39,688 nt of DNA from a virus, in IMG/VR virus record IMGVR_UViG_3300046519_000152, positions 1 through 39,688 of that record. One strand, 5' to 3'. How positions within the stretch are numbered: the first letter of the stretch is position 1; each line of letters begins with the position of its first letter. The notes below the pieces were generated by a model. It was given only the letters and a program-made list of their open reading frames with translations. It searched no databases and was not told the origin of the DNA. The translations under genes and the position numbers were made by a program. Below, in pieces: positions 6,158-39,513 of this stretch.

Positions 6158-6484
6158 ATGTCCAACATGCCCGAGAAAAACCCTGATTTCTGGGCGCAAG
6201 TCTGGATCGTCGTCACGACTCCCCTTTGGCAGGGCGCAATCATGTCGGCAACCATCTCGATGCTGCGCGTCCTCTATGAAGGCAAAGAAGCAAACAAGCG
6301 CCGCGTTTTGCTCGAAGCCCTCATGTGCGGCGGGCTGAGCTTGTCGGCCAGTAGCGTGATTGAGTGGATGGCTTGGCCTTCCAGTCTTTCGGTGGGAGCG
6401 GGTGGTGCCATCGGCTTCATTGGCGTGACCGCCATTCGTGAATTGATCATCAGGTTTCTCGGTCGCAAGGCGGATTCAGCATGA
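6158..6484 (+). CDS. Lambda-family holin
   Basis: 108 aa, starting at ATG 6158 after GGGAGGACAG. Three hydrophobic segments are visible: ~20-42 (TPLWQGAIMSATISMLRVLY), ~49-72 (LEALMCGGLSLSASSVIEWM) and ~77-100 (LSVGAGGAIGFIGVTAIREL), with a basic C-terminus, as in the lambda S / Phage_holin_3 family. Holins time lysis by opening lesions in the inner membrane for the endolysin. No dual-start motif as in lambda S is obvious, although Met1 and Met4 (MSNMPEK) could give two products. The spanin genes follow with an ATGA overlap; the endolysin is not here but at 38300. Confidence 0.85.
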   Translation: MSNMPEKNPDFWAQVWIVVTTPLWQGAIMSATISMLRVLYEGKEANKRRVLLEALMCGGLSLSASSVIEWMAWPSSLSVGAGGAIGFIGVTAIRELIIRFLGRKADSA

Positions 6485-6912
6485 ACCTCGAACCTGTTGT
6501 CGCAGTGACCAAATCAGTCTCCACTCTGCGTGCCATTGCGGCTGCCATCGTGATCGCCATTGTCATGGGGCTGCTCATAGCTATCCAGCAGATCCGTGTT
6601 GTGTCGCTCCAAGGCAACCTCACGTTGGAACGTGGCGCCACCGCGACCGCCCTGAGTGCCAACGCCGAGAGCCTGGCTACCATCACCACGCTGCGAGCCG
6701 AGGCCGCACGCAATGAGACTTACCGTCTCGATCTCGATAAGCGGCTGAAAGCCAGCGAGCAAAAAGCCGTACAGGCGAGGAAAGACTTTGAAGACCTCAA
6801 ACGCAAAAGCCCGGCTGTTCGTAAGTGGGCTGATCAGCCTTTGCCTGACGGCCTGCGCGGGAAGCCCGCCAGGTCCGGGAAAGACAACAACGTTAAGGCT
6901 CGAGCCCCCTGA
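6481..6912 (+). CDS. Rz-like i-spanin
   Basis: 143 aa, ATGA overlap with the holin. One N-terminal membrane anchor (~17-37, AIAAAIVIAIVMGLLIAIQQ) is followed by a long periplasmic alpha-helical, coiled-coil domain (TTLRAEAARNETYRLDLDKR and following) and a Pro/basic C-terminus. This is the Rz topology: anchored in the inner membrane, it joins the outer-membrane lipoprotein Rz1 to fuse the membranes at lysis. The last third overlaps an out-of-frame lipoprotein gene, which strongly supports the spanin call. Confidence 0.88.
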   Translation: MNLEPVVAVTKSVSTLRAIAAAIVIAIVMGLLIAIQQIRVVSLQGNLTLERGATATALSANAESLATITTLRAEAARNETYRLDLDKRLKASEQKAVQARKDFEDLKRKSPAVRKWADQPLPDGLRGKPARSGKDNNVKARAP

Positions 6913-7060
6913 GCTGGTCTCATGTGAGCGCATCAGCACCACCGATGACGACCTCGCGCTGAACGGCGACCTTTGGGCGTTGAAGGATCGAGCCGTAAAC
7001 CTACTCGACACCTGCGCCGATCAGGTCGACGCTCAGATCCTCCGAAGCAAAACTAAGTAA
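6788..7060 (+). CDS. Rz1-like o-spanin lipoprotein, nested in Rz
   Basis: A frame shifted relative to Rz begins inside it (TTG 6788 the first plausible start) and runs past its end to 7060, 90 aa. It shows a lipoprotein signal: ARLFVSGLISLCLTAC-AG, with lipobox L-T-A-C and lipidated Cys23, followed by a Pro/Gly-rich linker (AGSPPGPGKT) typical of Rz1. The mature protein is ~67 residues, on the long side for an o-spanin. It forms the periplasmic complex with Rz. The start is uncertain, since only TTG or CTG codons lie in the right place. Confidence 0.85.
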   Translation: MKTSNAKARLFVSGLISLCLTACAGSPPGPGKTTTLRLEPPELVSCERISTTDDDLALNGDLWALKDRAVNLLDTCADQVDAQILRSKTK

Positions 7061-19015: not shown

Positions 19016-19663
19016 ATGGGCTACAAAATCCCGAACGGTGGCACGTTTCAACACGCCGCTACCTACGCCGCTCCACTTGCTGTGTCCGCAATCAGCAACG
19101 CGACCGAAGCCGTCGCCACTGTCACTGGGGCCACTCTGGCCGTAGGCGATATCGTCTTGGTCAGTTCTGGCTGGACTCAGTTGAACGGCCGTGTCGCTCG
19201 GGTGAAAGCAGCCACCGCGACAGCGATCACTCTGGAAGGTATCGATACCACCAACACCCAGATCTTTCCTGCGCTGGGCGGCGTTGGTTCGCTGAAGAAG
19301 GTGCTGACGTGGGTGCTGATCCCGCAGATTACTGACGTCGCATTTTCCGGCGGCGATCAGAACTATCTGGCAGTCGTATTCCTGGAGGATGCTCAGGGCC
19401 GCGAAATGCCAACGGACAAGGCTGCCGCTCGAATGACGCTGACAGTGGCCGATGACCCGGCCCAGGCGTACGTCCCCATTGTTGTCGCGGCTGACGCCAG
19501 CGGCGCACCGCAAGCGTCCCGTCTCAATCTTCCAGGCAACGACACAATCTACTACGGCGCTTGCACATCTTGGTCCGCGCAGCCTGTTGTCGCTCGGGGC
19601 GCTCTCCTGACCCGGACCATCACGCTCGCGTTGCAAGCCCCTATCACCCGTTACCTGTCGTAA
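19016..19663 (+). CDS. Major tail tube protein
   Basis: 215 aa from ATG 19016 (AAAGAGGAAA upstream); a longer frame lies upstream but crosses the terminator hairpin. The protein is beta-rich with Thr/Ala/Val repeats and lambda gpV-like layout: MGYKIPNGGTFQHAATYAAP, then TGATLAVGDIVLVSSGWTQL, KVLTWVLIPQITDVAFSGGD and a C-terminal ARGALLTRTITLALQAPITR. The tube protein polymerises in stacked hexamers. Its place right before the chaperone pair and the tape measure is diagnostic. Confidence 0.86.
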   Translation: MGYKIPNGGTFQHAATYAAPLAVSAISNATEAVATVTGATLAVGDIVLVSSGWTQLNGRVARVKAATATAITLEGIDTTNTQIFPALGGVGSLKKVLTWVLIPQITDVAFSGGDQNYLAVVFLEDAQGREMPTDKAAARMTLTVADDPAQAYVPIVVAADASGAPQASRLNLPGNDTIYYGACTSWSAQPVVARGALLTRTITLALQAPITRYLS

Positions 19664-19672
19664 GGGGCAACC

Positions 19673-20062
19673 ATGGCCAAGTTCAAGATTGCGCAGGACC
19701 CCACGTTCAAAAAAGACGTGGATATCCCTCGCGTGAACGGCACCGTGAACAAGGTGCCATTTGAGTTCAAGTACCGAGACCGGAAGGAGCTGGCGAAGCT
19801 CTTCGCATCATGGAACGAGGCAATCAAGGATGACCAGGAGCGTTTCGCTGAGAAGGGTGATGACATCACCTTGGTCGACATCACTGATGCTCACATTGAT
19901 CGACAGATTGAGCAGGTCACTGAGTTGGTAGTGGGCTGGGGGTTTGACGACAAGCTGAGCCCTGAATCAATCCGCGCTCTGGTGGAAACCTCCGCTGGTG
20001 CAGGTGATGCAATCGTGAAGGCCTACCAGGAAGCGTTCGCCGCAGTCCGCCTGGGAAACTGA
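19673..20062 (+). CDS. Tail assembly chaperone, upstream product (gpG-like)
   Basis: 129 aa, ATG 19673 with AGGGGC. It matches phage tail assembly chaperones: FEFKYRDRKELAKLFASWNE, DITLVDITDAHIDRQIEQVT and LVVGWGFDDKLSPESIRALV. These small proteins bind the tape measure and prevent its aggregation during tail building. The gene ends in a canonical -1 slippery heptamer directly before its TGA (see separate entry), so a minority of ribosomes should make a 232-aa fusion with the next frame, the equivalent of lambda gpGT. Confidence 0.88.
   Translation: MAKFKIAQDPTFKKDVDIPRVNGTVNKVPFEFKYRDRKELAKLFASWNEAIKDDQERFAEKGDDITLVDITDAHIDRQIEQVTELVVGWGFDDKLSPESIRALVETSAGAGDAIVKAYQEAFAAVRLGN
20053..20059 (+). 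promoter_or_regulatory. Programmed -1 ribosomal frameshift site (GGGAAAC)
   Basis: The heptamer GGGAAAC fits X-XXY-YYZ in the zero frame (CTG GGA AAC, then TGA stop). Slipping back one base makes the ribosome read CTG AAA GAG and then GTG 20068, joining the chaperone to the downstream frame without a stop. Lambda uses GGGAAAG in the same place between G and T. The downstream stop codon next to the heptamer and a Shine-Dalgarno-like AGAGG are consistent with stimulation. AAC is a weaker slip codon than AAG in E. coli, so efficiency may be low. Confidence 0.85.
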
Positions 20063-20067
20063 AAGAG

Positions 20068-20370
20068 GTGTCGCAGGCGCTGTACACGTCCGCGACACCG
20101 GCTGATCAGCTCGCGATGTTTGGCATCACATCGACCGATCTCGACGAGACCATCGACGTGCTGCCGGACAACTGGGGGGCGTTTGTTCTTTTCGATGCGA
20201 TGTCCACGCAATGGCGCACAGGATACGGCGGTCGGACCGGCCTCGATTACTCCGCACTCCCAGCGGTGATGAACCTGCTAGGGCTCCCCAAAAAGAACAG
20301 AAACAGCCTTTTTCAAGACGTCATTGTCATGGAAACCGAGGCGTTGCTCGTCATGAGCGAAGAAAAATAG
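20068..20370 (+). CDS. Tail chaperone frameshift extension (gpT-like, DUF1799-like)
   Basis: 100 codons in the -1 frame relative to the chaperone gene, from GTG 20068 if translated alone; as a fusion the frame joins at 20059 through Leu-Lys-Glu. The sequence resembles DUF1799 proteins: SATPADQLAMFGITSTDLDE, then NWGAFVLFDAMSTQWRTGYG, GGRTGLDYSALPAVMNLLGL. These are the T-part equivalents that bind the tape measure. No good ribosome-binding site precedes the GTG, which supports production by frameshift. Confidence 0.85.
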   Translation: MSQALYTSATPADQLAMFGITSTDLDETIDVLPDNWGAFVLFDAMSTQWRTGYGGRTGLDYSALPAVMNLLGLPKKNRNSLFQDVIVMETEALLVMSEEK

Positions 20371-20380
20371 CGGAGCGACC

Positions 20381-23300
20381 ATGTCGGGCACAATTGCGCA
20401 GTTAGGCCTTGAGGTCGACTCGGGTGATGCCGTTCAGGCCGCCACGGATTTGGACAAGCTCACGGCGGCAGGCGTCAAGGCAGAAAAGGCCGCCGAGGAT
20501 GTGGCGGCCGGCTTCAAGAAGACCGCAGCGTCGGCTAACGAACTGGCAGCCGCCGAAGACAAGGCTTCCCAAGCGACTGACAACGCCAAGGCACGATTGC
20601 TGGAGACGGCCAAGGCCTCACTGGAGGCGAGCCAGTATTACCAGTCGCTCACGACTGGCGTGAAGAACAACGCCTCGGCCATGGACTCCGGGCGCGCTTC
20701 AACCACCAATTACGTCGACCTGCAAACCCGCCTCAAAGCGATGTCGGATGCGCTGGTCGGCACCACTGACAAGGTAGCGGCTTCGACCAAGCAGGCCGCA
20801 GCCGCTACCGGTGTCCAGGCCGAAGGATTGCAGGCGCTGTTGGGCAAAATCACCCCAGCGCTCGCCGCACTGCAAAAACTGGATGATCAGCAGGAGGAGC
20901 TGAACAAGCATCACGCCGCAGGCACCATTGGGGTGGACGACTTCAAAACCTACTCCGCTGACATCGACGCAGCGCGGCAGCGAATCAAAGGCCTAGGCGA
21001 CGACACCTCGAAGTTCAGCCTGAACACCAAGGGCGCGCGCGAAAACGTGCTCCAGCTCGGCAATGCTCTGGCCGAGGGCAACATTCGCGTCGCGGCGCAC
21101 AACCTGCTGGAAATAGGCACCAGTGCTGGGACGTCGGCGCTGCGCCTGGCTGCATTGCTTGCGCCAATCGCCGCGGTGGTTGCTGTCGTTGCCGCCTTGG
21201 GCGTTGCCTATTACAAGGGCAGCGAGGAATCCGACAGCTACAACAAGTCGCTGATCCTCACCGGCAGCGCGGCGGGTCTGAGCGCCGTGCAGCTCGGCGA
21301 AATGGCCCGCCAGGTCAGTGCGACGGTCGGAACCACAGGCGCGGCCGCTGAAACGCTTGCCGCGCTGGCAAGCAACGGCAAGATCGCAGGTGAAAGCTTT
21401 CTCTCAATCGCCACCGCTGCTCAGTCGATGCAGGAAGCGACGGGCCAGGCAGTAAGCGAAACGATCGCAGAGTTCGTTAAGCTGGCCGACGATCCAGTGA
21501 AGGCTTCGGCCGCGCTGAACGATCAATACCACTACCTCACCGCGTCGGTTTACTCCCAAATTGCCGCATTGGAAGAGCAGGGCAACCATGCGGGCGCGGT
21601 TAAGCTGGCGACCGAACAGTTCGCGGACGCCATCAACGAGCGCACCCCGAAGATTCTGGAGAACCTAAGTTTCTGGGAGAAGGGCTACAACGCTGTAGCA
21701 AAAGCGGCAGACTCGCTGAAAAACGTCGGCCGGTCCGACATTGTTTCGGATATTGCCAAAGCTCAAGACGATCTGGATCGAGCGCAGAGGGGCGAAGTCG
21801 GCCTCTTCCAAAACAAAGCCGTGATGGTCGAGTACTACACGGACAAGCTCAACTTTCTGAAGGACACCAAGGCCGCCCAGGATGATGATGCGAAGTACGC
21901 GGGCGAGCAGGCCAAAGCCCAGCAAGATTCGATCACCGCCATGGGCAAGATCGATGCGCTTACGAAATCCTCATACACCAATGAGCAGAAGCGCACCGAG
22001 GCGATCAAGGATTATCGGCGCTCGCTCGATGCCATTCGCAAGACCGATCCGAACGATGCGCGGCTGAATCAGGCGGCCATCGATAAGAACATCGCGAACA
22101 TCAATGACAAGTTCAAGGACGCCAAAGGGCCTGCAAATCAGCTGGACCTCAGCGGCGTCAATGACACCCAGAATCAGCTGAAATCGATTGCCGGCTATTA
22201 CCAGAACATCCAGAAGGAACTGGATGCGGCTCAGAAAGCTGGCCTGATCTCCGCCGAGTCTTACAGCAGCCAACGCACTGCCATTGTCGAGCAAGAGAAA
22301 GGCGACGTCACATCTGCGTACGAGGCAGAGATTGCCGCACTCGAAGCCACCAAGAGCAAATCGTCGACGTCCGCCCAGCAACGAATCCAGCTTGATCAGA
22401 AAATCGCTGACGCGCGCACCAGTATGGTCAAGGCGCAGCGTGATGCGGATAGCCAGCTTGAAGTGTTGGCGACAAACGAGCAAGGCCGTATGGCCAAGCA
22501 AGAGCGGTCGATCAACTCATACGTCCAGGCTCTCAGCCAGCAGCAAAAGGCGCTGGAGTTGGCCGGGCAGCGCGCCGTGCTGGGCGTTGGCCGTGGTGAT
22601 CGTGCAAACGCGCTCAATGGCGAGCTGAACAGCCAGCAGGACCGGTTTGCTCAGCAGTCGCTTGAACTCGCGAATCAGAAGTCCGATCCGTCGCGCAACA
22701 TGTCGGAAGACGAGTTCGCGAAGAAGTCGCAGGCGCTGGCCGACGCCAACAAAAACGCCACCGACCAGATCCGGCAGAATTACGCGGATGTCGAAGCAGC
22801 CCAGGGCAGTTGGACGAGTGGCGCAAGCGCGGCATGGGAAAATTACCTGGACAGCGCCAAGAACATTTCCGGGCAGACCAAGAGCCTTTTCGGCAACGCG
22901 TTCAGCTCCATGGAAGACGCTGTCGTCAACTTTGCGCTAACGGGAAAGCTGTCGTTCTCCAGCTTCGCAAAATCGATCCTTGCGGACATGGCGCGTATCG
23001 CTACACGGCAAGCGTCGTCTTCTTTGCTCAGCTCTCTGTTTGGGGCGGGGTTGAGTTACTTCAGTGGTAGCGGCACCGGGTCCGAATCGTTGGGGGCGAG
23101 CCAGGCAGGCTATTCGCAAACGTACTTCCCGCAGGCCAAAGGCGGCGCATGGTCGAACGGCGTGCAGATGTTTGCCGAGGGCGCGGCGTTCACCAACAGT
23201 GTTGTCAGTACACCGACTGCGTTCGGGATGGCCGGTGGCAAGACTGGTGTCATGGGCGAGGCGGGCGATGAGGCGATCATGCCGCTGACTCGAACCTCAA

Positions 23301-23527
23301 GCGGCGCCCTCGGCGTCCGCTCTGTAGGTGGCGGCGGTTCGAGCATCTCGATTAACGCGCCAGTGAGCGTCGTGACACAGGATCGAAGCGGCGAAGGGAT
23401 GCAGCTTGATCAAACAGCGCTTCAGCAGAATCTGCAAAAGCAGATGAAAAGTGCTGCGGAGAAAGCCGTGGCTGATTCTTGGCGCGCCGGCGGCGTCAGT
23501 TACCGCAACAGCACTGGGAGAGGGTGA
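20381..23527 (+). CDS. Tail tape measure protein, lambda gpH-like
   Basis: 1048 aa, ATG 20381. Mostly Ala/Gln/Lys-rich helix: N-terminal coiled-coil (DLDKLTAAGVKAEKAAEDVA), a hydrophobic stretch at ~255-282 (LAALLAPIAAVVAVVAALGV) that could insert in the inner membrane, a long helical rod and a Gly/Ser-rich C-terminal domain with SSFAKSILADMARIATRQAS, GGAWSNGVQMFAEGAAFTNS and AGDEAIMPLTRTSSG, the lambda-family tape measure C-terminal motif. The length sets the tail length, in lambda-like phages about 1.5 angstrom per residue; that rule would give ~150 nm. The final residues SYRNSTGRG lie just before gpM. Confidence 0.93.
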   Translation: MSGTIAQLGLEVDSGDAVQAATDLDKLTAAGVKAEKAAEDVAAGFKKTAASANELAAAEDKASQATDNAKARLLETAKASLEASQYYQSLTTGVKNNASAMDSGRASTTNYVDLQTRLKAMSDALVGTTDKVAASTKQAAAATGVQAEGLQALLGKITPALAALQKLDDQQEELNKHHAAGTIGVDDFKTYSADIDAARQRIKGLGDDTSKFSLNTKGARENVLQLGNALAEGNIRVAAHNLLEIGTSAGTSALRLAALLAPIAAVVAVVAALGVAYYKGSEESDSYNKSLILTGSAAGLSAVQLGEMARQVSATVGTTGAAAETLAALASNGKIAGESFLSIATAAQSMQEATGQAVSETIAEFVKLADDPVKASAALNDQYHYLTASVYSQIAALEEQGNHAGAVKLATEQFADAINERTPKILENLSFWEKGYNAVAKAADSLKNVGRSDIVSDIAKAQDDLDRAQRGEVGLFQNKAVMVEYYTDKLNFLKDTKAAQDDDAKYAGEQAKAQQDSITAMGKIDALTKSSYTNEQKRTEAIKDYRRSLDAIRKTDPNDARLNQAAIDKNIANINDKFKDAKGPANQLDLSGVNDTQNQLKSIAGYYQNIQKELDAAQKAGLISAESYSSQRTAIVEQEKGDVTSAYEAEIAALEATKSKSSTSAQQRIQLDQKIADARTSMVKAQRDADSQLEVLATNEQGRMAKQERSINSYVQALSQQQKALELAGQRAVLGVGRGDRANALNGELNSQQDRFAQQSLELANQKSDPSRNMSEDEFAKKSQALADANKNATDQIRQNYADVEAAQGSWTSGASAAWENYLDSAKNISGQTKSLFGNAFSSMEDAVVNFALTGKLSFSSFAKSILADMARIATRQASSSLLSSLFGAGLSYFSGSGTGSESLGASQAGYSQTYFPQAKGGAWSNGVQMFAEGAAFTNSVVSTPTAFGMAGGKTGVMGEAGDEAIMPLTRTSSGALGVRSVGGGGSSISINAPVSVVTQDRSGEGMQLDQTALQQNLQKQMKSAAEKAVADSWRAGGVSYRNSTGRG

Positions 23528-28012: not shown

Positions 28013-31000
28013 ATGGGCGCAGCACAGCAGTTAGATATTCATGGCGCCAAGGGCGGCAGCACCACACCAAAGTCGCCAACAGAAGCCACCGACAGCCTGC
28101 GCTCAACGAACCTTGCAAAGATCCTGATTGCGGTCGGTGAGGGCGAGTTTGACGGCGTCCCTACGGCAAAGGACATCTACCTCGACAACACCCCGATCGA
28201 GGACGTGAACGGCAACGTCAACTTCCCAAATGTGCAATGGGAATGGCGTTCTGGCTCCGTCGAGCAGTCCTACATTCCCGGCATCCCGTCCGTTGAAAAC
28301 GAAACGACCGTCAACGTTGAGCTGCGCAACGACGCGCCATGGGTTCGCTCGATCACCAACGTTCAGCTTTCGGCTGCGCGCGTGCGCTTGGCGTGGCCAG
28401 CACTTCAGCAGCAGGACGATGAAGGCAACGTCGGCGGATACCGGATCGAATATGCAATCGACATCGCGACCGATGGCGGCGCTTATCAGCAGGTGTTGAG
28501 CGAAGCTGTCGACGGAAAGACCACCACCCGATACGAGCGTTCGCGCCGCGTCGACTTGCCGGCTGCAACCACTGGCTGGCAGATCCGCGTCCGCCGCATC
28601 ACCGCGAACCAGAACACCAACAAGGTCGCTGACACCATGCTGGTGGCTGGCTTGACTGAAGTCATCGACAAAAAGCTGCGCTACCCAAACACCGCTTTGC
28701 TCTACATCGAGTTCGATGCCGAGCAGTTCACCAACATTCCCGCCGTTACAGTCGACTGTAAGGCCAAGAAGTGGCAGGTACCGAGCAACTACGATCCTGT
28801 CGCACGAACCTACACGGGAGTGTGGGACGGCACATTCAAGGAGGATTGGACCAACAACGCAGCCTGGATAACTTTCGGCGTCTGCACTGAAGACCGGTTC
28901 GGCCTGGGCAAGCGCATCAAACCCTTCATGGTCGACAAGTGGGAACTGTACCGGATCGCGCAGTACTGCGATGTGATGGTGTCCAATGGGGTGGGTGGCC
29001 AAGAGCCGCTATTTCTTTGCGACATGAACATCCAGGGGAAGTCCGACGCTTGGGGACTGCTGCGCGATATTTCTGCGATCTATCGCGGCATGACCTATTG
29101 GGCCCAAGGTCAGCTTGTGATGCAAGCAGACATGCCGCGCGCGCAGGATTTCGATTACGTCTTTACCCGCTCAAACGTGATCGACGGCAAGTTTTCCTAC
29201 GGTAGTGCCTCCTCTAAAACCCGCTACACCCGCGCGATCGTCAGTTACGATAATCCGGCGAACAACTACGACACCGACGTCGTCGCCTATTCCGACCTGC
29301 CACTACAGCGCCGATTTGGCGACAAGCCAGTGGAGATCAGCGCAATTGGTTGCACTCGCGCATCCGAAGCGCAGCGCCGCGGCAAGTGGGTGGTACTGAC
29401 CAACAACTTCGACCGCACCGTCAGCTTCAAGACCGGCATGGAGGGTGCAATCCCTCTGCCTGGCTACATCATCCCGGTTGCCGACTCGCTGTTGGCAGGC
29501 CGGGAGATCGGCGGGCGCATCTCGGCCGTTGCCGGGCGCGTCGTGACGCTGGACCGTGACACCCAGGCGAAGGCGGGCGACCGTCTGATCGTCAACCTGC
29601 CAAGCGGCAAAGCCGAGGCTCGCACCGTTCAATCGGTCGCCGGGCGCGCCGTGACTGTCACGACCGCCTACAGCGAGACCCCTGTCGCCCAGCTGCAATG
29701 GGCGATCGATGCTGATGATCTGGCAATCCCGCTGTATCGCGTGATGAGCACCAAGCGCACCACCGAGGGCGATTACGAAATCACGGCTTTGCAGTATGAG
29801 CCAAGCAAGTTCGCGGCGATCGACACCGGCGCGCGCCTGGAAGAACGCCCGATCAGTGTGATCCCGATCACCGTCGTTCCGGCGCCGGCGAGTGTGACGC
29901 TGACGTCGACCTCGGCCGTGTCGCAAGGCATCGCGGTCACCACCATGACGATCGCCTGGCCCCCGGTTAGCGGCGCAGTGGCGTACGACGTGGAGTGGCG
30001 CAAAGACAACGGCAACTGGATCTCCGTCCAGCGCACCGGCATGACCAACGTCGACATCACCGGCATCTACTCGGGCGGCTACCTCGCTCGCGTGCGTGCG
30101 GTGAGCGCATACGACATCACCTCGATTTGGAAAAGCTCGAACCTCACTCAGCTGAATGGCAAAGAAGGCCTGCCGCCAGCGGTGACCTCGCTCACCACCA
30201 CCAGTCTGCTGTTTGGTATCGGCCTGAAATGGACCTTCCCCGCCGGCGCGGAAGACACCCAGCGCACCGAGATCTGGTACAGCCAGTCGCCGACGCTGGA
30301 AACCGCGACCAAACTGGCGGACCTGTCGTACCCGCAATCCGACTATTCGTTGCAGCAGCTCAAAGCCGCCATCACGTTGTTTTTCTGGGCGCGCCTGGTG
30401 GACCGTTCCGGCAACGTCGGTCCGTGGTATCCAGCTGGCAACGGCGTGGCCGGGCAAACGAGCTCCGATGCTGACGCCATCCTCGATCTGCTCGTGGGCG
30501 AGATCACCGAGAGCCAACTTGGCCAGGAGTTGCTTTCCGATATCCAGACTGGCGGCTCAGGTCCTGGCTCTATCAGTGAGCGCCTGACCGAGATTGACGG
30601 AGAACTGATCGACCTCGGCAATCAGTCGATCGCGATCCGCGACAATCTGCAAAGTCAGATCACCTCAGTCAACGGCACGCTGACGTCCGTAAAAAATGAC
30701 CTTCAAGGTCAGATCACCGCGGCGAACGGCGCCCTCACGTCTGTAAAAAATGACCTGCAGGGACAGATCACAGCGGCCAACACTGCAATCACCGCCACCA
30801 ACACCGCGTTGAACGCAGCGAAGACCAACCTGCAATCGCAGATTGACGCCGTGAACGTGATCGCGGGCTCTCTGCCGTACAAGGCGAGCAGCACCTACAC
30901 GACCGGAAAAGCGACTCTCGGCTCTGACGGGATCATCTATCAGGCGACGCAGAACGTCCCGATCAACACGCCGCCGCCGAACACCACCTACTGGCTGAAC

Positions 31001-34000
31001 ATCGGCCAGGCCGCCGCCGCAGGTTCTGCGCTCAGCACTCGCGTGCAAACTCTCGAGACTCGCGCGACCAGCATCGAAGGCGTGAATAGCACGCAGGCGA
31101 CGCAAATCACCGGCCTGACCAGCTCTGTCGCCAACAAGGCAGACGCGTCGGCGGTCACGTCGCTGAACACTCGCGTGACCACTGCCGAGGGCAACATCTC
31201 CTCCCAGGGCAATGCGATCACCGGCCTGACGAACACTGTCGCGGGCAAGGCTGATTCGACCACTGTCACGAACCTGACCAACACCGTGACGCAGCAAGGG
31301 ACGGCGATCACGGCGCAGGGAACGGCGATCACTGGCATCACTGCCAGCTTGGGTGACGTAGGCGGGCAAAACCTGTTCTACAACCCGTCGTTGGATTACA
31401 TGCTGGCGGGCGGCTCGACTGTGGTCGCCGACGGCTGGGGCGTGACCAATGCCAACGGCTCGACCAACACTCCGAGCGTGGTTGCCTCGACCTTGGACCC
31501 GAAGGGCAAAGCTCAGCGCATTGATCTGGTAACGAGCGGCACCGGTTATGCCGATCTGACGCCGTTCACTGTTCGTCGTCCGTCGTTGTCAGCAGGTCAG
31601 AACGTCATGCTCTCCGCCTACGTGCGCGGTACCGCTGGTATCGCGGTCCGGATGTACATGCAACCGCTGAACGCTGCGGGCGCGACACTCGGAACGAAGA
31701 CCGGCCCGACAGTTGTAATGACCGGCGAGTGGCTCCGCATTCCGCTGGACTACGCGGCGCTACCTGCGAACACCGCATCCATGCACTGCATCTTTCGTCA
31801 GGGCGCGGCAATAGGCGGGACAGTCACAAGCGGTTTCGTCGAGTGGGATCGCCTGCAACTGCAACTCGGCACAGTGGTTACGGGCTGGCAGGACAACACC
31901 GGCACGATTTCTACCGACGTGGCCGCGAATGCTACGGCGACGACGGCACTCACTGGCCGCGTGGCGACTGTCGAGGGCAGCGTTACCAGTCAGGGAACGG
32001 CAATCACCACCCTGACGAACAACGTGACGCTGGCAGGCGGGCAAAACCTGCTGCCAAACCCATCGCTTGACCGCGAAAGCACAACTGCGGGCTTGGCACT
32101 GGGCTGGCGCACTGGCGTGGGCTCTGGAACCACCGCTGTTCGATCCCTCGTCGCCTCCACCTTGGACCCGAAAGGCAAGGCACAGCGCCTGGATATGACC
32201 GGCTTGAGCACTGGCGCGACCGCATACGTCGACTATGCCCTGACCGGCTCCGTCGCTGACGGCTACCTGGCAAGCGCATCGGTCGGACAGGTAATGACCA
32301 TGTCCGGGAACTGGCGTGCGACTGTCGGCCTGACTGTTCAACTGTTCTTCCAGTGGAAAAACGCGGCGGGCGGAACAATCAGCACCGACGGCGCTACTTC
32401 TTTCGCCTCAACTGGCGACTGGCAACGCGGATTCCGGACTGCCGCCGCTGCCCCCGTTGGAACCGTCGCCGTGGATCTGCTGTATAGAGTTCGCGGGGCA
32501 ACCGCCACCGCGGTCGATGGTTTTATTGAATTCGACCGCATGCAACTCGAGATCGGCTCACTTACCGGGTGGCGCGATAACAACTCGCTGGACGCGGTCG
32601 ACCTGACTGCGAACGCTGCGGCAACTACCGCGCTGACAACCCGCGTAACGAGCGCAGAAAGCACGCTTTCTACTCAGTCTGGTCAGATCACCACCCTGAC
32701 CAACGACGTTGCCGGCAAGGCAAGCTCGGCGACTGTAGCCGCGCTTGACTCGCGCGTAACAACGGCGGAGGGGAATATTGACTCTCAGGGCTCGGCAATT
32801 ACGAACCTGACGAACACTGTCGCCGGTAAAGCTGACGCGTCCGCCTTGAATGCCCTGACGACTCGCGTGACGAGCGCAGAGGGCACGATCACAAGCCAGG
32901 GCAACTCGATCACCGGCTTGACCAGCACGGTCAACAACAAGGCCGACGCATCCGCCGTCACTGCCTTGACTACCCGCGTGACCGCGACCGAGAGCAAAAA
33001 CAGCTCGCAAGATTCTACGATCACTAGTCAAGGGACGGCGATCACCAATCTGCAAAACGCCCTGCCAGGCAAGGCAGATGCGTCCGCTGTGACCGCGTTG
33101 ACTACTCGCGTTTCGAACGCCGAGGGGACGCTTTCTAGTCAGGGATCGGCGATCACCAGCCTGACCAACACCGTTAACGGCAAGGCCGATGCATCTACAG
33201 TGACGAACCTGTCAAACACGGTCACGGCGCAGGGCAACACCATTACCGCGCAAGGGACCGCGATCACTGGCATCAACGCTACGCTGGCAAACATCGGGGG
33301 CGAAGGCGCGAACCTGATCCCTGCGGAATACAGCTCGTTCACTTCGGTCGTGCCGAGCATGGCCAAACAAGGGGTTGTTGCACTTGCCGTCGAAGCCGAT
33401 AGCACCGCCTATTCCGGTTATTTACTGAAGGCTAGCACTACCACTTCCTCGACAGGTTACCTCTACCTCGGGGACGTCAGCGGGACTGATTACAACCTGC
33501 GGCTGACACCGAACGGTAAGTACATCTTTTCGTTTTGGGCAAAAGGCAGCGCCGCTCACAGTATTAGCGTGCGCCTTCGCTTCCCGGTAGCGGGCGGCGG
33601 CGTTAGCGAGTTTGTTGTAGGCACGGTGCCTGTCGGCACGGACCTTGCGCGCTTGAGCGTTGCCATTACCGCTTCCGCGACGCTGGTTAGCCAAGCGGTA
33701 ATAGTGCTGTACACGCAGAACACCGCCGCCATCGGCGACACATGGTTCGACGGGTTCATGCTTGAGCAGCAAGTCGGCACCGGCAGCGCTCCAAGCAACT
33801 TTATTCCTGGGCCGTCCACCCGTCAGTCTGCCGCCAACGCAACCGCGACCACCGCACTGACAGGCCGCGTCACGACCGTCGAGGGCACCGTTAGCACGCA
33901 GTCGAATCAGATCACGGCGCTGACAAACAATTTGACGAACAGCGGCGGCGACAACCTGCTACCGAACAGCTCGTTCGAGGATATGGCGACCACTCTCCGC

Positions 34001-36094
34001 CCTAAATACTGGCAAGTGGGCGGGAGCGCCTCGTGGACCGATTCCGTTCCTGCTTCGCCGCTGACCTTGAGCACGCAGTCGTATCGCGCTACATCTGCGG
34101 CGGCGGTTCCGGTTGCGGGAACGCTTGAAATTCGATTTAACACCGCAGAGGGTCCACGTCCGAAAGTCACTGGCGGCAACACCTACACGCTCAGCTCTTT
34201 CATCCGTGGATCGACTGGCGGCTTCCGTATCTCGATGTACATTCAGTTCATGAACGCGGCAGGGACAGTGCTCAGCACTCCCACGATGACCGAAACCCTC
34301 GTGACTGACACGTTCACCCGCTACACGCTGACCGGCGTCGCTCCGGCGCTTGCTGTGAGCGCAAACGTGTACGCCGTGCGGATCTTTAACCGCACTGCCG
34401 CCGCCGCTGATATGTTCGTCGAAGTCGACAACGTCCAGTTTCAGGAAGGCCCGGTAGCGACCGCGTATAGCCCTTCAATCAAAATCGCTCTCGATGCACA
34501 GTCCGCAGCGACCGCCGCTCTGACCTCCCAGGTCACGCAGCAAGGGACTGACATCACCAGCGCATCGACACGCGTCACCAATCTGGAAAACAGCGTCAAC
34601 AACGCTACGACCGGCCTGGCGACCAAAGCGAGCAGCGCCGCACTTGATTCCCTGACGTCGACCGTCACGACTCAGGGAACCAACATCACCAGCGCGACAA
34701 ACCGCGTGACGACTCTCGAGAACAGCGTGAACAACGCCTCGACCGGTCTGGCGACGAAGGCAAGCAGCACGGCCCTCAACTCGCTGTCTGGAACCGTAAC
34801 GACTCAGGGCAACACGATCACGTCTCAAGGGACCGCGATCACGAACCTGGCCAACACGGTCAACAGCACCACTGACGGTCTGGCAACGAAGGCGAGTGCC
34901 GCGGCGCTCACGGCCGTGACCAGCCGCGTGACCGCCGTCGAGGGCGTCAACACCAGCCAGTCGACCAGCATCACGAACCTCACGAACTCGATCAACTCGA
35001 TCCAGGGCGATCTAAATGGCTCGGAGCTGGACGCGGCGCCGGGGGCGAACTGGAACTTTGACGGTTCGCTCGACGGATGGTTTGGGCAGAACGCCTCCGT
35101 GGCACTGGTCGGAACCAGTTCTATGCGCGTCACGGCGTCGACGGCCAACCCGATTGCCGCTTGCGGCAACCTGTCGATCGTGGGCGGTCGTTACAACATC
35201 GTGCGGGCCAAGATTACCCGCCGCACGGCCAACGCTGCGGACTGGAACGGCATCCTCTACTACGCCACGCCTGGGCATGGCGTCAGCTCGAGCTATTACA
35301 AAGCGTCGGCAAACCCGAACATCGCCGTCGACGCCAGCGCAATCGTAGAATGGGATATGTCGGCGCTGACTGCGGGCGGCGCGGACTGGATGAACAACAC
35401 GATCAACACGCTCCGCTTCGACCTCGGCACGCGCACAGACAGCGTTTTTGATATCGACTGGATCGTGGTCGGGCGTAAAGGCCCCGGCGCATCGAGCCAG
35501 GCTCTGTCGTCCCTGTCGTCGACCGTGACTCAGCAAGGCACTACGCTGACCTCTCAGGCGTCGGCAATCACGAACCTGAACACGACTGTCGGCAATCAGG
35601 GCGCGGCGTTGCAGATCCAGGCGCAGGCAATCGGCGACACGGCGGGCAAGGTTTCCAGCTCGTACACCGTCAAGCTGCAAGCTATGACCGACGGCCGTCA
35701 GTTCATGGCGGGATTCGGGATTGGCCTCGATAACAGCTCAGGCGTAACGCAGTCGCAAGTCATATTCAACGCTGACACGTTCGCGGTGCTAAATGGCAGC
35801 GCCGACCTCAATAACGGTGGCCGGGTGGTGTCGCCTTTCGTTATCGAGGGCGGACAGGTTTTTATGTCCGACGCCGTAATTAAGAAGGCAACTATCACCA
35901 ATGCGATAATTGGGTCGACAATTTATTCGCAGACCTTCACGTCGTATGGGCAACCTGTGATGACCACCGACTACAACAGCGGCATGATCACTATCCAAAA
36001 TAAAGCGACCCAAGGCCGATACATGTTCATTCGTGACGACGGCATCTTTATGGTGTCCGGCGGCGTCGTTATGGTGGAATTGAGCTTGGCGTAG
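28013..36094 (+). CDS. Giant tail-tip/host-specificity protein, lambda gpJ-like (2693 aa)
   Basis: ATG 28013 after GGAGAAAAGC. Residues ~1-620 form the gpJ hub (ILIAVGEGEFDGVPTAKDIY, then QRGKWVVLTNNFDRTVSFKT). Two fibronectin III-like domains follow (~625-715 and ~720-815). ~880-955 is a coiled coil with an 18-aa duplication (SVKNDLQGQITAAN twice), then a short aromatic module ~957-1000 (YKASSTYTTGKATLGSDG), like chitin-binding CBM5. From ~1000 to 2540, five jelly-roll-like modules of ~150-185 residues (starting ~1114, 1341, 1763, 1978, 2341; G-xx-NL-NPS/F motif) alternate with Ser/Thr/Gln-rich coiled-coil linkers. The C-terminal ~150 residues are a DUF1983-like end. Lambda gpJ has about 1130 aa, so this one is more than twice as long. 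It contacts the receptor. Confidence 0.93.
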   Translation: MGAAQQLDIHGAKGGSTTPKSPTEATDSLRSTNLAKILIAVGEGEFDGVPTAKDIYLDNTPIEDVNGNVNFPNVQWEWRSGSVEQSYIPGIPSVENETTVNVELRNDAPWVRSITNVQLSAARVRLAWPALQQQDDEGNVGGYRIEYAIDIATDGGAYQQVLSEAVDGKTTTRYERSRRVDLPAATTGWQIRVRRITANQNTNKVADTMLVAGLTEVIDKKLRYPNTALLYIEFDAEQFTNIPAVTVDCKAKKWQVPSNYDPVARTYTGVWDGTFKEDWTNNAAWITFGVCTEDRFGLGKRIKPFMVDKWELYRIAQYCDVMVSNGVGGQEPLFLCDMNIQGKSDAWGLLRDISAIYRGMTYWAQGQLVMQADMPRAQDFDYVFTRSNVIDGKFSYGSASSKTRYTRAIVSYDNPANNYDTDVVAYSDLPLQRRFGDKPVEISAIGCTRASEAQRRGKWVVLTNNFDRTVSFKTGMEGAIPLPGYIIPVADSLLAGREIGGRISAVAGRVVTLDRDTQAKAGDRLIVNLPSGKAEARTVQSVAGRAVTVTTAYSETPVAQLQWAIDADDLAIPLYRVMSTKRTTEGDYEITALQYEPSKFAAIDTGARLEERPISVIPITVVPAPASVTLTSTSAVSQGIAVTTMTIAWPPVSGAVAYDVEWRKDNGNWISVQRTGMTNVDITGIYSGGYLARVRAVSAYDITSIWKSSNLTQLNGKEGLPPAVTSLTTTSLLFGIGLKWTFPAGAEDTQRTEIWYSQSPTLETATKLADLSYPQSDYSLQQLKAAITLFFWARLVDRSGNVGPWYPAGNGVAGQTSSDADAILDLLVGEITESQLGQELLSDIQTGGSGPGSISERLTEIDGELIDLGNQSIAIRDNLQSQITSVNGTLTSVKNDLQGQITAANGALTSVKNDLQGQITAANTAITATNTALNAAKTNLQSQIDAVNVIAGSLPYKASSTYTTGKATLGSDGIIYQATQNVPINTPPPNTTYWLNIGQAAAAGSALSTRVQTLETRATSIEGVNSTQATQITGLTSSVANKADASAVTSLNTRVTTAEGNISSQGNAITGLTNTVAGKADSTTVTNLTNTVTQQGTAITAQGTAITGITASLGDVGGQNLFYNPSLDYMLAGGSTVVADGWGVTNANGSTNTPSVVASTLDPKGKAQRIDLVTSGTGYADLTPFTVRRPSLSAGQNVMLSAYVRGTAGIAVRMYMQPLNAAGATLGTKTGPTVVMTGEWLRIPLDYAALPANTASMHCIFRQGAAIGGTVTSGFVEWDRLQLQLGTVVTGWQDNTGTISTDVAANATATTALTGRVATVEGSVTSQGTAITTLTNNVTLAGGQNLLPNPSLDRESTTAGLALGWRTGVGSGTTAVRSLVASTLDPKGKAQRLDMTGLSTGATAYVDYALTGSVADGYLASASVGQVMTMSGNWRATVGLTVQLFFQWKNAAGGTISTDGATSFASTGDWQRGFRTAAAAPVGTVAVDLLYRVRGATATAVDGFIEFDRMQLEIGSLTGWRDNNSLDAVDLTANAAATTALTTRVTSAESTLSTQSGQITTLTNDVAGKASSATVAALDSRVTTAEGNIDSQGSAITNLTNTVAGKADASALNALTTRVTSAEGTITSQGNSITGLTSTVNNKADASAVTALTTRVTATESKNSSQDSTITSQGTAITNLQNALPGKADASAVTALTTRVSNAEGTLSSQGSAITSLTNTVNGKADASTVTNLSNTVTAQGNTITAQGTAITGINATLANIGGEGANLIPAEYSSFTSVVPSMAKQGVVALAVEADSTAYSGYLLKASTTTSSTGYLYLGDVSGTDYNLRLTPNGKYIFSFWAKGSAAHSISVRLRFPVAGGGVSEFVVGTVPVGTDLARLSVAITASATLVSQAVIVLYTQNTAAIGDTWFDGFMLEQQVGTGSAPSNFIPGPSTRQSAANATATTALTGRVTTVEGTVSTQSNQITALTNNLTNSGGDNLLPNSSFEDMATTLRPKYWQVGGSASWTDSVPASPLTLSTQSYRATSAAAVPVAGTLEIRFNTAEGPRPKVTGGNTYTLSSFIRGSTGGFRISMYIQFMNAAGTVLSTPTMTETLVTDTFTRYTLTGVAPALAVSANVYAVRIFNRTAAAADMFVEVDNVQFQEGPVATAYSPSIKIALDAQSAATAALTSQVTQQGTDITSASTRVTNLENSVNNATTGLATKASSAALDSLTSTVTTQGTNITSATNRVTTLENSVNNASTGLATKASSTALNSLSGTVTTQGNTITSQGTAITNLANTVNSTTDGLATKASAAALTAVTSRVTAVEGVNTSQSTSITNLTNSINSIQGDLNGSELDAAPGANWNFDGSLDGWFGQNASVALVGTSSMRVTASTANPIAACGNLSIVGGRYNIVRAKITRRTANAADWNGILYYATPGHGVSSSYYKASANPNIAVDASAIVEWDMSALTAGGADWMNNTINTLRFDLGTRTDSVFDIDWIVVGRKGPGASSQALSSLSSTVTQQGTTLTSQASAITNLNTTVGNQGAALQIQAQAIGDTAGKVSSSYTVKLQAMTDGRQFMAGFGIGLDNSSGVTQSQVIFNADTFAVLNGSADLNNGGRVVSPFVIEGGQVFMSDAVIKKATITNAIIGSTIYSQTFTSYGQPVMTTDYNSGMITIQNKATQGRYMFIRDDGIFMVSGGVVMVELSLA
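30682..30790 (+). repeat. Tandem 54-bp repeat in gpJ coiled coil
   Basis: ACGTCCGTAAAAAATGACC at 30683 and ACGTCTGTAAAAAATGACC at 30737 start two copies of a 54-bp unit encoding SVKNDLQGQITAANG. The run of six adenines is shared. It extends the rod in heptad-like steps of 18 residues. Confidence 0.75.
31120..35640 (+). repeat. Degenerate coding repeat family in gpJ linkers
   Basis: Peptide units like NKADASAVTALTTRVTATE, GKADASTVTNLSNTVTAQG and TKASSAALDSLTSTVTTQG recur in clusters at about 31120-31350, 32600-33290, 33830-33930, 34490-35010 and 35490-35640, each ~22-30 residues. They encode beta-to-helix linkers between the jelly-roll modules. At DNA level copies differ at many synonymous sites (compare 32939-32980 with 33071-33112: same 14 residues, 9 synonymous codon changes). 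Confidence 0.75.
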
Positions 36095-38735: not shown

Positions 38736-38969
38736 TCAGTCGAATCGGGCCTTGCTGGCATTTAGGGTTGCCGGACTTGCTCGGCCGATGCTGTCAAGTT
38801 CTACCCATGGATTGAGGCTTGCTAAGGCGCTCGCACAGCCGTGGCCGTGCTGGAACGGGGAGCTCCTATCATTCTCTGATTGCGACGCGTGGCATGCGCG
38901 ACAACTGACCACCGTCTTAGATATCTGCCATGTGAAGTGCCAACGAATCAGGCGGTCTTGTGCATTCAT
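38736..38969 (-). CDS. Small CxxCH/zinc-ribbon-like protein A (77 aa)
   Basis: ATG at 38969-38967 with GGAGATAAC upstream on the minus strand. The core reads MNAQDRLIRWHFTWQISKTV, then SCRACHASQ, with PFQHGHGC and NPWVELDSI. The C-x2-C-H and H-x3-C spacing suggests a small zinc site. Its paralogue lies at 39254. No known family is recognised. It is convergent with the endolysin, only 10 bases from its stop. Confidence 0.72.
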   Translation of the reverse strand: MNAQDRLIRWHFTWQISKTVVSCRACHASQSENDRSSPFQHGHGCASALASLNPWVELDSIGRASPATLNASKARFD

Positions 38970-39253: not shown

Positions 39254-39451
39254 TCAAAATCCTTGGCAGATGCGGTCCAGTTCATACCAAGGGTCCGACG
39301 CTTCACTGTCATTTCTACAATGGGGCGCGTGCAGAAACGGCGTGGCTATGTCAGTTTCTTGCTGGGACGCGTGGCACGCTCTGCACGACACTTCATCCCT
39401 TGTCATCTGCCAGGTGAAATGCCACTTGAGCAGTCTTTCCTGGGCGTACAT
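39254..39451 (-). CDS. Small CxxCH/zinc-ribbon-like protein B, paralogue of A (65 aa)
   Basis: ATG at 39451-39449 aligns with the start of protein A: MYAQERLLKWHFTWQMTRDE, then SCRACHASQQETD, PFLHAPHC and DPWYELDRI. Identity to A is high across the first 32 residues and at all the cysteines and histidines. The ribosome-binding site is weak; GTG and TTG codons lie upstream in frame. A tandem duplicate in the non-essential end of the genome suggests accessory, possibly anti-host or anti-phage function, not tested. Confidence 0.68.
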   Translation of the reverse strand: MYAQERLLKWHFTWQMTRDEVSCRACHASQQETDIATPFLHAPHCRNDSEASDPWYELDRICQGF

Positions 39452-39513
39452 CACTGAATCCGGTATGAGCCTCAACTGCGCTAGGGTGGGCCCATATCAT
39501 CCCAAAAGATAGA

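What the first reader, a model, noticed from the sequence alone, without database searches (positions are those of the whole stretch)
20053..20370. Canonical -1 frameshift site fuses tail chaperone to DUF1799-like frame
Seen: GGGAAAC sits in the correct zero-frame phase (CTG GGA AAC TGA), directly before the stop, and slippage leads straight into the 100-codon downstream frame without a stop (Leu-Lys-Glu then GTG 20068). The downstream GTG lacks its own good ribosome-binding site. Known: lambda G/GT uses GGGAAAG in the same place. Inference: the phage makes a 129-aa and a 232-aa product. The Z base is C (AAC), less slippery in E. coli than AAG, so the ratio may differ from lambda's.
Basis: partly seen in the sequence, partly recalled or inferred. 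Interest (0 to 1): 0.75.

Follow-up and report, generated by a model that had tools for sequence, protein, structure and literature searches.

The report
Phage tail-chaperone frameshift signal with hairpin
This phage makes two versions of a tail-building helper protein from one gene because ribosomes occasionally slip back one base at GGGAAAC, a well-known trick of long-tailed phages; here it is backed by strict conservation in relatives and by a predicted RNA hairpin just downstream.

Summary
GGGAAAC (20053-20059) lies in X_XXY_YYZ phase at the last codons of a 129-aa tail assembly chaperone (PF08748) and leads into an open -1 frame holding PF08809 (DUF1799), between tail-tube and tape-measure genes. 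One such site could be chance (5.7% of codon shuffles have some heptamer in the overlap). Conservation excludes that: GGGAAAC is kept in phase in 107/107 relatives (91 distinct sequences), although GGA is only 5% of glycine codons in these genes. Across wider DUF1799 loci the site is X_XXA_AAC in 159 of 163. Independent initiation at GTG 20068 is unlikely: no properly spaced Shine-Dalgarno, no nearby start codon in half the relatives, and the GTG lies inside a hairpin.

It is far more stable than synonymous recodings (z -3.5), shows compensatory changes, and equivalents recur in several distant family members, not all. It is the probable stimulator.

Verdict: a G/GT-type programmed -1 frameshift, a new member of a known kind; GGGAAAC-TGA was already predicted in phage KL1. 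DUF1799 is not detectably homologous to lambda T. Frameshifting itself was not measured.

The parts
19673..20062 (+). Tail assembly chaperone ('G' product), 129 aa, Phage_TAC_4
   Evidence: PF08748 E 1.3e-34 over residues 1-129; phrog_569
20053..20059 (+). Slippery heptamer G_GGA_AAC
   Evidence: sequence; invariant in 107/107 relatives
20060..20062 (+). Zero-frame stop TGA directly after the heptamer
   Evidence: TGA or TAA there in nearly all relatives
20067..20099 (+). Predicted stimulatory RNA hairpin, 12 of 13 bp, 7-nt spacer after the heptamer; contains GTG 20068 in its 5' arm
   Evidence: fold -20.4 kcal/mol; z -3.5 against synonymous recoding; covariation in relatives
20059..20370 (+). 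-1 frame extension ('T' part), 103 codons after the slip, containing DUF1799; fusion product 232 aa
   Evidence: PF08809 E 6.2e-23; phrog_680; alignment A3
20068..20070 (+). GTG, nominal start of the downstream ORF, probably not used
   Evidence: no spaced Shine-Dalgarno; start codon not conserved; base-paired in the hairpin
19016..19663 (+). Tail tube protein (context)
   Evidence: PF08813 E 3.7e-56
20381..23527 (+). Tape measure protein, 1048 aa (context)
   Evidence: PF06791 and PF09718

Best explanation
Programmed -1 ribosomal frameshifting of the lambda G/GT type. Most ribosomes decode GGA AAC and stop at TGA, giving the 129-aa chaperone. A minority slip back one base on G_GGA_AAC, probably while held by the hairpin that starts seven nucleotides downstream, and continue into the DUF1799 frame, giving a 232-aa fusion. 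By analogy with lambda, the chaperone part would coat the tape measure protein and the C-terminal part would recruit tail-tube subunits, the low fusion:chaperone ratio being what matters. Shown here: the signal, its phase, its conservation, the two domains, the gene order and a supported hairpin. Inferred: that slippage occurs, its rate, the hairpin's stimulatory role, and the functions in assembly.
For: In-phase heptamer leading into an open -1 frame with a conserved domain. GGGAAAC kept in 107/107 relatives; the preceding codon always ends in G although its amino acid varies (L, T, S, E, Q, R, A); glycine is GGA in 91/91 distinct sequences here but in 33 of 663 glycines elsewhere in the same genes. 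L073 and phage PseuP_222 keep the heptamer although their stop is one codon later. Wider DUF1799 loci: X_XXA_AAC next to the stop in 159 of 163. No start codon in the first 12 codons after the site in 46 of 91 distinct relatives, and no spaced Shine-Dalgarno in any. Hairpin: z -3.5 against synonymous recoding, control windows sd 0.91 and minimum -2.2; covariation score reached by 0 of 500 shuffles. Annotated joins in Sweeny and Smarc2; predicted GGGAAAC-TGA in phage KL1 (PMC3483164).
Against: No direct measurement of slippage in this phage or in any DUF1799 relative was found. AAC is a poor shift codon in E. coli assays (PMC4066793). The hairpin is missing in many relatives, so it cannot be essential to the family.
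Confidence: 0.95

Rival explanations
1. The DUF1799 ORF is an independent gene started at GTG 20068, perhaps by termination-reinitiation after TGA 20060; the heptamer is incidental.
For: A GTG lies 5 nt after the stop in the window and some relatives; several relatives have an ATG about nine codons in; public records mostly annotate a separate ORF with a later start.
Against: No start codon within 12 codons in 46/91 distinct relatives and no spaced Shine-Dalgarno in any; conserved T residues upstream of the annotated starts (A3); the GTG is paired in the hairpin; the heptamer would have no reason to be invariant.
Confidence: 0.03
2. The fusion comes from RNA polymerase slippage rather than ribosomal slippage.
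For: Transcriptional slippage does make fusions in some bacterial genes (PMC5009743); AAAAAAC relatives have a six- or seven-A run.
Against: GGGAAAC has only three-base runs, too short for RNA polymerase slippage by general knowledge, while GGGAAAC and AAAAAAC occupy the same place in homologues. A conserved hairpin at a ribosomal spacing fits translation.
Confidence: 0.01
3. The frameshift is real, but the hairpin is a by-product of coding constraint or serves something else, such as hiding the GTG or protecting mRNA.
For: Many relatives lack it, and the heptamer alone could suffice, as thought for lambda.
Against: Energy exceeds synonymous recodings of the same peptide (z -3.5; relatives to -4.5) while control windows do not; compensatory changes; equivalents start 6-8 nt after the heptamer in distant phages (Vaitephage z -6.6, Medea1 -5.1, T1-like loci about -4 to -5).
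Confidence: 0.2

Closest known systems
Bacteriophage lambda G/GT tail assembly chaperone frameshift (Xu, Hendrix, Duda 2004, as cited in PMC3483164 and PMC5009743)
   Same: Gene order tube - G - T - tape measure; [quoted passage not shown] -1 fusion with a C-terminal extension
   Different: Lambda uses AAG and slips about five codons before the G stop; chaperone Pfam family differs (PF06894 against PF08748); DUF1799 not detectably related to lambda T (PF06223), hhalign probability 0.6%; hairpin present here
Burkholderia phage KL1 gp18/gp19 (PMC3483164)
   Same: Predicted GGGAAAC directly before the TGA of the chaperone gene, -1 fusion, predicted stem-loop downstream
   Different: KL1 has an extra gene before the tape measure; prediction only; its proteins were not compared here
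Drexlerviridae and similar phages with annotated joins (Klebsiella phage Sweeny, Serratia phage Smarc2)
   Same: Homologous DUF1799 -1 frame, annotated as a joined frameshift product
   Different: Smarc2 uses AAAAAAC; Sweeny lacks the canonical heptamer (GCA AAA GTT TAA)

Membership tests
Phage tail assembly chaperone programmed -1 frameshift (G/GT type) | Two overlapping ORFs between the tail tube and tape measure genes | tested here: met
   PF08813, PF08748, PF08809, PF06791 in order
Phage tail assembly chaperone programmed -1 frameshift (G/GT type) | In-phase slippery heptamer leading into an open -1 frame | tested here: met
Phage tail assembly chaperone programmed -1 frameshift (G/GT type) | Site evolutionarily conserved beyond codon needs | tested here: met
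   91/91 distinct sequences, GGA otherwise 5% of glycines
Phage tail assembly chaperone programmed -1 frameshift (G/GT type) | Measured fusion product at a low ratio | not testable with these tools
   needs reporter or mass spectrometry
Phage tail assembly chaperone programmed -1 frameshift (G/GT type) | Fusion required for tail assembly | not testable with these tools
   needs phage mutants
Lambda G (PF06894) / T (PF06223) protein families | Sequence homology of the extension to lambda T | tested here: not met
   hhalign of the DUF1799 profile with lambda T: probability 0.6%; no PF06223 hit
Phage_TAC_4 PF08748 + DUF1799 PF08809 | Pfam gathering scores passed | tested here: met
   119.5 against cut-off 21.1 bits; 81.3 against 26 bits

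The most novel reading that the evidence does not exclude
The TAC_4/DUF1799 phages keep the fusion scarce by a common rule: the heptamer is always X_XXA_AAC, a codon that shifts poorly in bacteria, and some lineages then raise the output with a hairpin 6-8 nt downstream. Where AAG is used (Taid, KLB16) the first slip codon is not slippery. Output would thus be set by swapping stimulator and A-site codon between lineages.
Probability: 0.4. Interest if true: 0.4.

Novelty: new member of a known kind. Interest (0 to 1): 0.27.

Why it matters
It shows that the separate 'hypothetical' DUF1799 ORF in many phage records is very probably the C-terminal half of a frameshift fusion, so many annotations start that gene wrongly. 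The family offers a natural series (GGGAAAC, AAAAAAC, tetramers; with and without hairpin) for testing how bacterial ribosomes use AAC as a shift codon and how phages set the chaperone:fusion ratio.

Tried and rejected
Consensus fold over 26 diverse relatives gave no common structure; the signal appeared only after splitting by subclade and testing against synonymous recoding. Rfam has no match for the element. A sequence link between DUF1799 and lambda T was sought and not found. A Shine-Dalgarno stimulator upstream, as in dnaX, was looked for by eye: AGGA at 20028-20031 is about 21 nt before the heptamer, too far. Transcriptional slippage was rejected because the runs are short. The primary papers on lambda G/GT were not in the library, so lambda facts come from reviews and citing papers. 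Structure prediction was not run: it would not bear on the frameshift.

Full report
OBSERVATION. The window contains GGGAAAC at 20053-20059, in the phase CTG GGA AAC TGA of the ORF 19673-20062. A -1 slip gives CTG AAA GAG GTG and then an open frame to 20370; the products would be 129 and 232 aa. The -1 frame is open from 20008, a 52-nt overlap; in codon shuffles of the chaperone gene, 5.7% have some in-phase XXXYYYZ in that stretch and 0.4% have one exactly at the end. One sequence alone is therefore suggestive, not proof.

CONTEXT. The two frames are Phage_TAC_4 (PF08748) and DUF1799 (PF08809); upstream are a tail terminator and tail tube protein (PF13554, PF08813), downstream a tape measure protein (PF06791, PF09718) and minor tail proteins M and L. 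This is the lambda-like tail order. The window is a 39,688-base virus record with close relatives mostly in Pseudomonas prophages.

CONSERVATION. All 107 relatives found by the chaperone (80 from IMG/VR, 27 from bacterial genomes) carry GGGAAAC in the same phase. They are 91 distinct sequences. The base before the glycine codon is always G although the codon varies (CTG, TTG, ACG, TCG, GAG, CAG, CGG, GCG). Glycine is GGA 91 times in 91, but 33 times in 663 elsewhere in the same genes. L073 and PseuP_222 have the stop one codon later and still keep the heptamer. In 22 named phages the site is GGGAAAC or AAAAAAC in 19, and in three (Sweeny, Taid, KLB16) no canonical heptamer is present but an A_AAA or A_AAG tetramer is. 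Of 163 further loci found by DUF1799, 159 have X_XXA_AAC at the end of the chaperone ORF: AAAAAAC in 131, GGGAAAC in 28 (44 distinct 21-nt contexts, so these loci are far from independent). The other four are one with the heptamer but a lost stop and three with a five-A run. No canonical heptamer seen in this family ends in AAG.

INDEPENDENT START. The nominal GTG 20068 has GAGG directly against it, with no spacer. In 46 of 91 distinct relatives there is no ATG, GTG or TTG in the first 12 codons of the -1 frame, and none of the nearby starts has a spaced Shine-Dalgarno. Conserved residues of the extension lie upstream of the starts that public records choose. The GTG is paired in the hairpin described next.

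HAIRPIN. Nucleotides 20067-20099 fold as GGUGUCGCAGGCG-cuguaca-CGUCCGCGACACC (12 of 13 pairs), -20.4 kcal/mol, beginning seven nucleotides after the heptamer. Against synonymous recodings of the same peptide the z-score is -3.5; 18 of 74 distinct relatives reach p <= 0.01, while 149 control windows further along the same frame have mean -0.06, sd 0.91 and minimum -2.2. In the window's subclade 89.9% of cells pair, four pairs change on both sides, and the covariation score exceeds all 500 shuffles; the slid controls fall to 25-60% paired. These are related sequences, so the shuffle count is not a probability. In the wider family equivalents start 6-8 nt after the heptamer in Vaitephage (z -6.6), Medea1 (-5.1) and T1-like loci (about -4 to -5), and are absent in others. 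A single consensus over all relatives does not exist. The best reading is a lineage-specific stimulator, gained or lost repeatedly.

MECHANISM. Established for lambda (as reviewed in PMC5009743): gpG and gpGT in about 30:1 ratio, the G part binding the tape measure protein and the T part the tail tube protein. The same is inferred here from gene order and domains. In E. coli, heptamers that shift from AAC to AAA are less efficient than those with AAG (PMC4066793; PMC5009743), so the fusion is expected to be scarce, and a hairpin would raise it. That the first slip codon never varies fits the report cited in PMC5009743 that tRNA-Asn supports only double slippage.

COMPARISON. It works like lambda G/GT and belongs to the class described by Xu, Hendrix and Duda (2004), which I could not read directly. 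GGGAAAC directly before TGA was already predicted in Burkholderia phage KL1 (PMC3483164) and GGGAAAC in Caulobacter phage Colossus (PMC3556154). Records of Sweeny and Smarc2 annotate the homologous join. It is not a member of the lambda T sequence family: the DUF1799 profile does not match lambda T, although it sits in the same place.

VERDICT. Confirmed, and ordinary in kind. What is added is the quantitative conservation, the hairpin, and the rule that heptamers in this family end in AAC.

Noticed in passing
   Followed up: yes
L236 near 1180-1201; L268, L277, L292 just upstream of 1201: Exceptions in the survey: L236 keeps GGGAAAC but has TGG in place of the TGA stop; L268, L277 and L292 have five A where relatives have six, which breaks the usual frame relation (real variants or homopolymer sequencing errors).
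   Followed up: partly
L125, L126, L127: Sweeny, Taid and KLB16 have the DUF1799 frame but no canonical heptamer (GCA AAA GTT TAA; CAA AAG TAA; TCA AAG GAT TAA): probable tetramer shift sites.
   Followed up: partly
L005-L008 against the window: Chaperone about 80% identical to the window's but the DUF1799 part of L005 only about 49%, hinting at exchange near the frameshift junction.
   Followed up: no
38736-38969 (-) and 39254-39475 (-): Two small paralogous ORFs (54% identical over 61 aa, shared motif SCRACHASQ) with no Pfam or PHROG match.
   Followed up: partly
6481-6912 and 6788-7060 (+): Rz-like spanin pair, the second ORF overlapping the end of the first in another frame (phrog_89 and phrog_456).
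   Followed up: partly
28013-36094 (+): Very long ORF of 2693 aa in the place of the tail tip protein J, with a long stretch of repeated TSxVTxLExxVN-like segments.
   Followed up: no
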